Source of the DNA: an uncultured Bacteroidales bacterium
GTDB taxonomy: Bacteria; Bacteroidota; Bacteroidia; Bacteroidales; UBA3663
DNA: 64,000 nucleotides
Assembly: GCA_905235375.1 (NCBI GenBank)
Contig: CAJOLH010000015.1
Coordinates: forward strand, 38,248-102,247
Reading direction: 5' to 3'
The position numbers were made by a program, and so were the translations under genes. The notes beneath the pieces were generated by a model. The model saw nothing but the letters and a program-made list of their open reading frames with translations. It did no database searches and was not told the origin of the DNA. This document shows, piece after piece, positions 17,028 through 53,280 of the stretch (position 1 is its first letter; each line of letters opens with the position of its first letter).

Positions 17028-17218
17028 TTTAGGGATTCTAAGGGATTTGAAGGGATTCTAAGGGATCTTAAGGGACGAAAGTTTCTAAGGGATTCTAAGG
17101 GATTATTAGAGATTATAAGGGAAATTAAGGGACGTTTGCTCTGCTTCTACAACTGGACAAGGCAAATGCTTCGTCCCCAAATATCCCTTAATATCACCAA
17201 ATATCCCTTAATATCCCT
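17028..17218. repeat. intergenic tandem-repeat hairpin (AAGGGATTCT / AATATCCCTT arms)
   Basis: tttagggattctaagggatttgaagggattctaaggg...ttaagggacg ... cgtccccaaatatcccttaatatcaccaaatatcccttaatatccc. Confidence 0.85.
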
Positions 17219-38754: not shown

Positions 38755-38890
38755 TTTGTCATAAGGGATATTAAGGGATGTTTGGGGATATTTAGGGATA
38801 TTTGGGGTCAATGCATTCGCCTTAACCAATTGGAATAGCAGTACATTCGTCCCTTAATATCCCTTAAATTCCCTTAATATCCCTTAGAAT
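38755..38890. repeat. intergenic tandem-repeat hairpin (AAGGGATATT arms)
   Basis: (aagggatatt)n ... loop ... attcgtccc(ttaatatccc)n; complementary arms. Confidence 0.85.
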
Positions 38891-40845: not shown

Positions 40846-41871
40846 CTATTTGTCAGCACCACCATAACTGATCAGCAAGCCGATCACCGCCGAATAGCTC
40901 TTCCGCCCCTCCTCAATCCTATTGGAACGAAGATAGAGGTCAAAGATCTTATCCTGAATATTGCCAAGAGTCGTGCTGTAGAGGCCCGACCAATGTTCAT
41001 ACCTTGCCTGCTCAAGCTGGATTATCTCGGGTCGAATCTGGGCTCGAAACACTTCGTATTCCTCCCCTCCCACACCCTCCATCGCACGAAGCACATAGTG
41101 CAGGATGGAAAGATAGCCGCTGAAACGTATCGACGGAACGTCGCTCGACGTGCAGGCAAGGAAACCGTAGAAGTTCGCCTCCCCTTCGCTGGTGATGCCT
41201 AAGAGGTGCGAAAGTTCATGCGCGTAGGTCGCTGCATATTCGCAGGGCAGCAGGTCACCGTTAACAATAAATTCGCCGAAGAAAGGCCCCATCGTGCCCG
41301 TCACTCCAACCTTCGAGGCGAGCGGTGTCAGCAGCATGGTCTTCACCTGCGGTTGCTCGGTGAAAGGCGTATGGATACCTAACCTTTCACCCATTCGGGC
41401 ATATTGCCTCACCACCTCCCGCTGCACCAGCGCTTCGTCAACTTCCTTTATCTCGACATACGCATCATTGAGCCTCTCCACATAGTCGTCGGCAAAGCGC
41501 TGTAAGGCAGCAACGTCATAGTTCGGACGAGGTGTCGATGTGCGCTGATAGAAGTCCGATTGGCTATAGTTCAGCCCCCAAGCCGCATAGAACCACACGT
41601 AGAGCCACACTACCAGCTCCATTTCCATCCACAAAACCTTGCGCTTCCGCTGTCTGCATTTCGTAACGGCGAGAATAGGATAAAGCAGAAGGCCCAGGAT
41701 TCCAACGATATAGAAAACTCCACTGATGCTGAAAGGCATCAACGAGGAAAACGCAGACAATGGCTTGGCAACAACGGGGTAGATATGCTGCGCATATAGG
41801 TCGCCCCCTCCAGGCAGGAGTTGGAACGACACAACCAACAGAAACAATATCAGCAGAACCGTTCGTCTCAT
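40846..41871 (-). CDS. DUF3810-family membrane protein with zinc-protease-like HELSH motif
   Basis: TM N-terminus; AATYAHELSHLLGITSEGEANFYGFLAC. Confidence 0.75.
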   Translation of the reverse strand: MRRTVLLILFLLVVSFQLLPGGGDLYAQHIYPVVAKPLSAFSSLMPFSISGVFYIVGILGLLLYPILAVTKCRQRKRKVLWMEMELVVWLYVWFYAAWGLNYSQSDFYQRTSTPRPNYDVAALQRFADDYVERLNDAYVEIKEVDEALVQREVVRQYARMGERLGIHTPFTEQPQVKTMLLTPLASKVGVTGTMGPFFGEFIVNGDLLPCEYAATYAHELSHLLGITSEGEANFYGFLACTSSDVPSIRFSGYLSILHYVLRAMEGVGGEEYEVFRAQIRPEIIQLEQARYEHWSGLYSTTLGNIQDKIFDLYLRSNRIEEGRKSYSAVIGLLISYGGADK

Positions 41872-41978
41872 CTTAGTCTTGCATACTTCGAGCGCAAAGA
41901 TACGAATTATTTCCGATTTATCCAAATCCTTTGGGAGTTATTCGCAAAAATAAAACAAAAACCAGTTCACAACCTTCG

Positions 41979-42480
41979 TAAGCACGCTGTCGCGCGACAG
42001 AATGCTTTATCCCATCGAAGAATACCCTTTCTTGGCCAGAATTGGGTATGCTCCCGCAGAAGAATGACCATTTTCAGCCAAGAATGGTTATGCTCCCGTC
42101 GGCGAAAGCATTCTGTCGGCCGTCAGAGTGCCTTATCCTGTCGAAGAATTCCCTTTCTTGGTCAGGATTGGGTATTCTTCAATCGTGGCATACCCTTTTT
42201 TGGCCAACTTTGGTTATGCTCCAAACGGAGAAAGCACTCTGACGGCCGACAGAGTGCTTTTTCCAAACGAGGAATACACTTTCTTGGCCGAAATTGGTCA
42301 TGCTCCTGTCGCAGCATACCCTTTCTTGGCCAACTTTGGTTATGCTCCAAACGGAAAAAGCACTCTGACGGCCGACATAGTGCTTTTTCCAACCGAGGAA
42401 TACCCTTTCTTGGCCGAAATCGGTCATGCTCCCGTCGAGGCATGACCTTTTTCGGCCAAGACTGGTCATACCTCGATTTG
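41979..42480. repeat. array of twelve 42-bp palindromic units in a 126-bp higher-order repeat (ABC x4)
   Basis: Unit centres (GGCC or variant) at 41992, 42034, 42076, 42118, 42160, 42202, 42244, 42286, 42328, 42370, 42412 and 42454: exactly 42 bp apart. Best palindrome AAAGCACTCTG-ACGGCCGA-CAGAGTGCTTT at 42231-42260. Confidence 0.93.
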
Positions 42481-42695
42481 AGATGGTGTATTTGCCGTCT
42501 TAGCCTTCCAATTAGACAAATTAATCCGATAATTTTCATCGGGAAATGCAATTATTTGGCAAAAAGAGGGAATTATCGGAAAAAGACATTATTTTTGCAT
42601 TTTAGTTTCCGATATATCGGAATAACGGCATACCGTAATTTCGGAATCCCGGAATAACGAAATCCCCCGCAAAAAGCAATAACCCAAAAAGAAAT

Positions 42696-43976
42696 ATGAA
42701 GAAAAACCTCGAGACCATCTGCGTTCACGGCGGATGGAAGCCCCAGAAAGGCGAACCCCAGCAGTTGCCTATTTACGAGAGCACCACATTCAAGTATGAA
42801 ACCAGCGATCAGATGGCACGTCTCTTCGACCTGAAGGACGACGGCTACTTCTACACCCGCCTTGCCAACCCCACCAACGATGCCGTGGCCAAGAAGATTG
42901 CCGCCCTCGAAGGCGGTGTAGGTGCCGTCCTTACCTCCTCGGGACAGGCTGCCAACTTCTACGCCATCTTCAACATCTGCGAAGCTGGCGACCACTTCGT
43001 CACATCCAACACCATCTACGGCGGCACGTTCAACCTCTTCGGCGTGACGCTCAAGAAACTCGGCATAGAATGTACCTTCATCGATCCCGATTGGGACGAC
43101 GAACGTATCGAGGCTGCCTTCCGTCCGAACACGAAATGCTTCTTCGGCGAAACTATCTCCAACCCCGGTGGAAACGTGTTCGACATCGAGCGATTTGCCA
43201 AGATGGCGCACCGCCATGGCGTGCCCCTCATCGTCGATAACACCTTCGCCACGCCCATCAACTGCCGTCCCTTCGAATGGGGCTGCGACATCGTGACCCA
43301 CTCCACCACAAAATACATGGACGGACACGCCGCACAGGTGGGCGGTGCTGTAGTCGATTCGGGCAACTTCGACTGGGATGCCTACGGCACGAAGTTCCAC
43401 GGCCTGACCACGCCCGACGAGAGCTACCACGGCCTCACCTACACCAAGGCTTTCGGCAAGATGGCCTACACCACCAAGCTCGTCAGCCAGCTGATGCGCG
43501 ACTTGGGCAGCATCCCCTCGCCCTTCAACGCTTATATCCTCAACCTTGGCCTTGAGTCGCTGGCACTGCGCATGAAGCAGCATTGCGCGAATGCCCAGAA
43601 GGTTGCCGAGTGGCTGGAGAAGAACCCGCGTGTGAGCTGGGTGAACTACTGCGGCCTGCCTTCTAACAAGTATTATCCCTTGGCGCAAAAATACCTGCCC
43701 AACGGCTCGTGCGGAGTCATTGCCTTCGGCCTGAAGGGAACGCGTGAGGATGCCATCCGCTTCATGGACAACCTCGACTTCATCTCCATCGTCACCCACG
43801 TCGCCGATGCCCGCACCTGCGTGCTCCATCCCGCCAGCCACACCCATCGCCAGCTCTCCGAAGAACAGCTTCGCGAAGCAGGCGTCGCTCCCGACCTCGT
43901 TCGCCTCTCAGTCGGCATCGAAAACGTCGATGACATCATCGCCGACCTTGAGCAGGCGATGGCTAAGATGGGATGA
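42696..43976 (+). CDS. O-acetylhomoserine aminocarboxypropyltransferase / Cys-Met metabolism PLP enzyme (MetY-like)
   Basis: TICVHGGW, PIYESTTFKYE, YTRLANPTNDAVAKKIAALEGG, HSTTKYMDGHAAQVGG, VRLSVGIENVDDIIADLEQA. Confidence 0.92.
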   Translation: MKKNLETICVHGGWKPQKGEPQQLPIYESTTFKYETSDQMARLFDLKDDGYFYTRLANPTNDAVAKKIAALEGGVGAVLTSSGQAANFYAIFNICEAGDHFVTSNTIYGGTFNLFGVTLKKLGIECTFIDPDWDDERIEAAFRPNTKCFFGETISNPGGNVFDIERFAKMAHRHGVPLIVDNTFATPINCRPFEWGCDIVTHSTTKYMDGHAAQVGGAVVDSGNFDWDAYGTKFHGLTTPDESYHGLTYTKAFGKMAYTTKLVSQLMRDLGSIPSPFNAYILNLGLESLALRMKQHCANAQKVAEWLEKNPRVSWVNYCGLPSNKYYPLAQKYLPNGSCGVIAFGLKGTREDAIRFMDNLDFISIVTHVADARTCVLHPASHTHRQLSEEQLREAGVAPDLVRLSVGIENVDDIIADLEQAMAKMG

Positions 43977-49649: not shown

Positions 49650-49795
49650 AGTAAAAAGGGAGTAAAAGGGGAGTAAAAAAGGGAGTAAAAGGGACAATAC
49701 TACCGCCTTTCGAAAAGAACTCCCTAAAATAAGAAGCCCTAACAACATTTGTCCCTTTTTCTCCCTTTTTACTACCCTTTTACTACCCTTCAATA
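49650..49795. repeat. intergenic tandem-repeat hairpin (AAAAGGGAGT arms)
   Basis: agtaaaaagggagtaaaaggggagtaaaaaagggagtaaaaggg ... tttgtccctttttctccctttttactacccttttactaccc. Confidence 0.85.
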
Positions 49796-53199: not shown

Positions 53200-53280
53200 A
53201 TCTAATATCGGGATTGCGGAATTTCGTAATAACGGGATTTCGGGATTTCGGAATAACGGCATTACGGAATAACGATATTA
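53200..53280. repeat. intergenic CGGAATAACG-type repeat
   Basis: cgggattgcggaatttcgtaataacgggatttcgggatttcggaataacggcattacggaataacg; shares CGGAATAACGGCAT with 42610-42625. Confidence 0.75.

What the first reader, a model, noticed from the sequence alone, without database searches (positions are those of the whole stretch)
41979..42480. Twelve helically phased 42-bp palindromes in an ABC x4 array with no indels
Seen directly: palindrome centres (GGCC, or GGTC/AGCC/GCGC variants) fall at exact 42-bp intervals from 41992 to 42454. Three unit types (A: AAAGCACTCTGACGGCCGACAGAGTGCTTT; B: GAATACCCTTTCTTGGCC..GGGTATGC; C: GCATACCCTTTTTTGGCC..GGTTATGC) cycle with a 126-bp higher-order period. Some arm changes look compensatory (ATACCC/GGGTAT in unit 2 versus ATGACC/GGTCAT in unit 12), which suggests the dyad itself is conserved. 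42 bp equals four 10.5-bp turns, so all dyads lie on one face of the helix. Inference: a multi-site protein-binding array (segregation/nucleoid, decoy or regulatory platform) or a cruciform/RNA-hairpin array. I recognise no known family.
Basis: partly seen in the sequence, partly recalled or inferred. Interest (0 to 1): 0.88.

Follow-up and report, generated by a model that had tools for sequence, protein, structure and literature searches.

The report
Evenly spaced 42-bp palindrome arrays
Between genes, a group of uncultured rumen bacteria carry blocks of about 10-12 near-palindromes repeated every 42 base pairs, roughly one block per 36,000 bases along the chromosome; the geometry is kept while the sequence changes, which suggests that the blocks help to organise the chromosome.

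Summary
In detail: twelve dyads at exact 42-bp steps (window 41979-42470, order ABC x4). It is one copy of a dispersed system. In the sequence read (1.2 Mb of this MAG, 0.39 Mb of a sister MAG) most long tandem arrays have a 41/42-bp unit, mostly 10-12 units, in at least six palindrome families that share geometry and a CNA|TNG spacer core. Arrays are intergenic, enriched between convergent genes (OR 4.9) and evenly spaced (26 intervals, mean 35.7 kb, CV 0.26; 0 of 20,000 random placements match). In orthologous arrays, indels that break the register are about 6 times rarer per substitution than in flanking DNA. Coding is rejected. Pair-by-pair compensation was tested within two families and not found, so symmetry is kept at half-site or family level. 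The main family occurs in 6 of 15 genus genomes; its exact motif was found in no other sampled species and in no viral contig. REP/RAYT and ParB/parS membership fail. Best reading: phased nucleoprotein (binding or topology) arrays that organise the chromosome, working like BIME-2, sopC or matS without being members. The binding factor is unknown; a homogenised neutral satellite is the main rival.

The parts
41979..42470 (.). whole array: 12 dyad units of 42 bp (30-bp near-palindrome + 12-bp spacer), order ABC x4
41979..42008 (.). type A palindrome 1 (AAGCACGCTGTCGCGCGACAGAATGCTT)
42105..42134 (.). type A palindrome 2
42231..42260 (.). type A palindrome 3
42357..42386 (.). type A palindrome 4
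42021..42050 (.). type B (M family) palindrome 1; the further B units start every 126 bp at 42147, 42273 and 42399
42063..42092 (.). type C (M family) palindrome 1; the further C units start every 126 bp at 42189, 42315 and 42441
40846..41871 (-). left neighbour, DUF3810 protein (PF12725) read from the ATG; the longer TTG-start ORF 40846-41925 is what was scanned
42696..43976 (+). right neighbour, Cys/Met-metabolism PLP enzyme (PF01053; O-acetylhomoserine sulfhydrylase-like, the subfamily being my inference)

Best explanation
The array is one of a genome-wide set of chromosome-organising sites. Shown: each site is about 10-12 dyads locked in a 42-bp register (alternating half-sites every 21 bp, i.e. 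on one face of the helix if the DNA is near 10.5 bp/turn); sites lie between genes, preferentially at convergent gene ends, about once per 36 kb; palindrome families differ in sequence but share geometry and spacer core. Inferred: a dimeric DNA-binding or topology-acting protein (a clade-specific nucleoid protein, or gyrase or another topoisomerase as in BIME-2) assembles co-operatively along one face of each array, and the sites mark or relieve chromosomal domains of about 36 kb. The binding factor was not identified.
For: Register: 646 of 677 adjacent unit steps in 75 arrays are exactly 42 bp, 8 more are 84, nearly all others 41 or 43; 306 x 42 and 27 x 41 of 333 steps in contiguous sequence. 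Register-breaking indels per substitution 17/2189 in arrays against 55/1126 in flanks (Fisher p 1.9e-13, though pairs share sequences), although spacer sequence is not conserved (72% against 75% in flanks and 84% in palindromes). Unit number: this MAG 11 or 12 in all 17 arrays first catalogued. Even spacing: 26 intervals, mean 35.7 kb, CV 0.26, minimum 24.2 kb; 0 of 20,000 random placements, also with doublets unmerged. Neighbouring arrays are often of different families, so families appear interchangeable. Shared geometry and spacer core in six families. Convergent gaps 18/37 against 82/507 background, OR 4.9, p 1.2e-5. Many sites orthologous across species; one probable site with M/A arrays in two species and a D array in a third, joined by the left flank only.
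Against: No binding protein was found: no extra ParB paralogue and no consistent RAYT. Families of different sequence are hard to reconcile with one sequence-specific protein. Homogenisation could keep register and unit number without selection. Sites can be lost: one is empty in G000 where three relatives carry it. All genomes are MAGs; one array runs off a contig end, so long uniform arrays may be missed. The spacing test rests on two genomes. The window's own array lies between divergent genes.
Confidence: 0.5

Rival explanations
1. Neutral or selfish satellite: palindromes amplified by slippage or hairpin-mediated replication and homogenised within arrays; intergenic location only reflects removal elsewhere.
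For: Units are homogenised within arrays (unit-to-consensus identity 0.7-0.96), higher-order repeats differ between arrays, and whole-unit gains or losses occur (12 in 27 ortholog pairs).
Against: Unit number is narrow (11-12 in all 17 arrays of this MAG first catalogued) where neutral slippage should broaden it; spacing along contigs is far too even; several families share geometry, spacer core and layout.
Confidence: 0.27
2. RNA-level 3'-end element: arrays transcribed from neighbouring genes form hairpins that terminate, insulate or stabilise mRNAs, as proposed for REPs.
For: Bias to convergent 3' ends; very stable predicted folding (z -19); A units resemble GC hairpins with T/A tails.
Against: The spacer length is fixed although its sequence is not, which a string of RNA hairpins would not need; no compensatory covariation in M or A; the GGCC centre of M, which would be the loop, is among its most conserved positions; tandem-context arrays read by eye show no clear strand preference for U-U or G-U; the minimum-energy fold is one long-range structure, not 12 hairpins; arrays also lie between divergent genes.
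Confidence: 0.12
3. Centromere-like partition sites (ParB/SopB type, as sopC).
For: sopC is twelve 43-bp repeats, each with a 16-bp inverted repeat bound by a ParB dimer (PMC9178275), very close in geometry and unit number.
Against: One ParB_N protein in 14 of 15 genus genomes, none found in the incomplete G000, no extra paralogue in array-bearing genomes; a parS-like cluster lies elsewhere, on G000:C66, and no parS in the array; dozens of sites and several families.
Confidence: 0.06
4. A tandem-repeat peptide (14 codons per 42 bp).
For: 42 is divisible by 3 and some arrays have an open frame.
Against: 43 of 75 arrays have no open frame in any of six frames; the window ORF has no Pfam hit. Two mirror-image frames show raised synonymous ratios (1.87 and 1.59), which I attribute to the symmetric placing of variable columns.
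Confidence: 0.02

Closest known systems
BIME-2 / REP arrays of enterobacteria (DNA gyrase sites)
   Same: Intergenic arrays of imperfect palindromes in alternating half-site orientation, many per genome; BIME-2 elements bind and are cut by gyrase (PMC2817692, PMC6379681). That REPs favour 3' ends is my own knowledge.
   Different: No consistent RAYT, exact 41/42-bp register, stereotyped unit number, several families with one geometry, even ~36 kb spacing. Fixed register and even spacing are not features of BIMEs to my knowledge.
F plasmid sopC centromere
   Same: 12 x 43 bp tandem repeats, each with an inverted repeat bound by a dimer (PMC9178275).
   Different: One site on a plasmid beside sopAB; here dozens of chromosomal sites of several families, with no dedicated ParB found.
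MatP-matS, SlmA and Noc binding sites (own knowledge)
   Same: Palindromic chromosomal sites spread along the genome that organise the nucleoid.
   Different: Those are single sites of one consensus; here 10-12-unit phased arrays of at least six consensuses.

Membership tests
REP/BIME with RAYT (IS200/IS605-like TnpA-REP) | a Y1 (RAYT-type) transposase gene in the genome | tested here: not met
   PF01797 has no match in G000, G003, G004 or G006, all array-bearing; it is present in some array-bearing and some array-free members
REP/BIME with RAYT (IS200/IS605-like TnpA-REP) | many extragenic palindromes in clusters of alternating orientation | tested here: met
REP/BIME with RAYT (IS200/IS605-like TnpA-REP) | GTAG/CGTC end tag on the palindrome | not tested
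   no tag search was run; the printed family consensuses show no GTAG or CGTC at their ends (by eye)
ParABS / sopC-type centromere | a dedicated ParB-type binding protein beyond the housekeeping ParB | tested here: not met
   one ParB_N match in each of 14 of 15 genus genomes, none in G000 (90% complete), no extra paralogue in array-bearing genomes; binding proteins without ParB_N not excluded
ParABS / sopC-type centromere | chromosomal parS consensus in the sites | tested here: not met
   no parS with up to 4 mismatches in the window array; parS-like cluster on another contig, C66
ParABS / sopC-type centromere | about 12 tandem ~43-bp units, each with a dyad | tested here: met
Structured RNA known to Rfam | covariance-model match above the curated threshold | tested here: not met
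   two chance-level hits far below gathering scores
Structured RNA known to Rfam | compensatory base-pair changes | tested here: not met
   M and A families
Protein-coding tandem repeat | an open frame maintained through the arrays | tested here: not met
DNA gyrase / nucleoid-protein binding array | binding in vivo | not testable with these tools
   needs ChIP or Topo-seq

The most novel reading that the evidence does not exclude
A new class of chromosome-architecture element: evenly spaced, helically phased dyad arrays in which position, register and unit number are under selection while the sequence family can be replaced, read by a factor that recognises array geometry (or the shared CNA|TNG spacer core) rather than one palindrome sequence.
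Probability: 0.35. Interest if true: 0.93.

Novelty: new variant of a known kind. Interest (0 to 1): 0.8.

Why it matters
Bacterial chromosome-organising sites known to me are single short motifs or plasmid centromeres. A set of multi-unit phased arrays about every 36 kb, with exchangeable sequences but fixed geometry, would point to a structural code for domain organisation in the Bacteroidales, where nucleoid biology is little known, and would give a direct handle for finding the protein that reads it. If it turns out to be a satellite, its narrow unit number and even spacing would still need an explanation.

Tried and rejected
Coding. Pair-by-pair hairpin covariation in M and A. RNA polarity by neighbouring-gene strand: tabulated and read by eye, weak. 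RAYT link. Extra ParB or parS in the array. Plasmid or phage origin: no blastn match and no exact M motif in viral contigs. Rfam. Literature searches for such arrays in Bacteroidales found nothing relevant, and the main text of a 2025 REP survey has no mention of Prevotella or tandem arrays. Isolated M sites in G011 as possible operators: most proved to lie in arrays; L260 and L261 were not resolved.

Full report
The array. Window 41979-42470 holds twelve dyad-symmetric units at exact 42-bp steps, in the order A-B-C four times. Each unit is a ~30-bp near-palindrome plus a 12-bp spacer. B and C belong to one family (M, half-site CCAAGAWTGGTYATGC); A is a second family (half-site CCGWCAGAGTGCTT). 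The array lies between a DUF3810 gene on the minus strand and a Cys/Met-metabolism PLP gene on the plus strand.

Who has it. The window lies on contig 15 of a 3.9-Mb, 125-contig MAG. With up to 2 mismatches the M motif occurs 70-125 times in six of fifteen genus genomes and not at all in the other nine. In one genome for each of 84,980 species, exact matches come only from six MAGs titled as rumen or omasum Bacteroidales/Prevotellaceae; none occur in viral contigs and the array has no plasmid or phage match. Among genomes where the PLP gene was found, the array-bearing ones are those at or above 88% identity to G000 and the nearest array-free ones are at 81% (G006 had no good match), which suggests one clade; no tree was built.

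A set of families, one geometry. Lag analysis of contiguous sequence (1.20 Mb of G000, 0.39 Mb of G003) shows that most long tandem arrays have period 41/42 or a multiple. They fall into at least six palindrome families (M, A, D, F, G, H), plus E, whose period is partly 41. The first six share a dyad of about 28-32 bp, a 12-bp spacer and a common spacer core CNA|TNG, weakest in A. A cluster scan that requires at least two nearby hits finds essentially only these arrays; a scan for lone units was not printed. Family D, like M, occurs only in the same six genomes. Array-free relatives carry shorter 41/42-bp arrays of other sequence (G005 3-5 units of 41 bp; G012 about 5-6 units of 42 bp), while 0.29 Mb sampled from 20 other families of the order has no tandem array of 100 bp or more.

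Register and unit number. Of 677 steps in 75 arrays, 646 are 42 bp and 8 are 84; nearly all others are 41 or 43. In 27 orthologous pairs, register-breaking indels are 0.008 per substitution in arrays against 0.049 in flanks (Fisher p 1.9e-13, although pairs share sequences), while spacer sequence (72%) is no more conserved than flanks (75%) and palindromes are 84%. So length is kept without sequence. Unit number is narrow: in this MAG 13 arrays of 11 and 4 of 12, mostly 8-11 in relatives, although unit order differs (all A, MAMA, all M). Shorter exceptions exist: a 3-unit A array on G000:C15 and a 7-unit H array on C3.

Place in the genome. Arrays lie between genes, enriched in convergent gaps (18/37 against 82/507, p 1.2e-5) and not enriched in divergent ones. 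Along sixteen contigs or parts of contigs, 26 inter-array intervals have mean 35.7 kb, CV 0.26 and minimum 24.2 kb; random placement gives a mean CV of 0.85 and a mean minimum of 1.4 kb, and none of 20,000 trials reaches the observed values, also when doublets closer than 1 kb are left unmerged. Many sites are orthologous across species. One site carries M/A arrays in two species and a D array in a third, linked by the left flank only, so it is a probable, not a proven, family exchange; one site is empty in G000.

What it is not. Coding is rejected (43/75 arrays without any open frame). Within M and A the arms do not compensate, and several positions mismatch more than expected, which I attribute to a shared ancestral unit. 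REP/RAYT and ParB/parS membership fail tested features. No Rfam family matches.

Mechanism. The best-supported reading is a phased nucleoprotein array that marks or relieves chromosomal domains of about 36 kb, preferentially at convergent gene ends. It works like BIME-2 (gyrase; PMC6379681) or sopC (12 x 43 bp; PMC9178275). The binding step and the factor are inferred. The main rival is a homogenised satellite.

Limits. All genomes are MAGs; one uniform array runs off a contig end, so upper limits on unit number are soft. Most contigs read were chosen because they carry an M/A array. The spacing test covers two genomes. Genes were called by longest ORFs.

Noticed in passing
window 42607-42666 and 53203-53280: Short arrays with an 8-bp period (CGNAATNN); the one at 42607 lies directly upstream of the PLP gene. 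70 pattern hits in 1.2 Mb of G000 and none in 0.35 Mb of other genus members or 0.29 Mb of other families.
   Followed up: partly
window 17031-17132, 38764-38807, 49650-49694: Short tandem repeats with a 10-bp (about one helical turn) period, AGGGATATTA-like; 13 hits of AAGGGATNTTAAGGGAT in 1.2 Mb of G000 and none in the sampled relatives.
   Followed up: partly
L115:4669-5173; G000:C10 about 24.4-25.0 kb; G003:C39 1.5-2.4 kb: Doublets: two arrays of different families (M/A or A next to D) side by side, each mostly with about 10-12 units.
   Followed up: partly
L258:3136-3466, L273:2683-3013, L055 about 982-1244: A further repeat family (E, TTGTACTGCYTGTGTACACTTGATACAA) of about 8 units with steps of 41-42 bp, near M or D arrays.
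   Followed up: partly
L159:3011-3231, L160:11421-11538, L164:2054-2183 (G005); L174:4414-4647, L242:503-702 (G012): Array-free relatives in the genus carry 41- or 42-bp repeats of other sequence with 3-6 units.
   Followed up: partly
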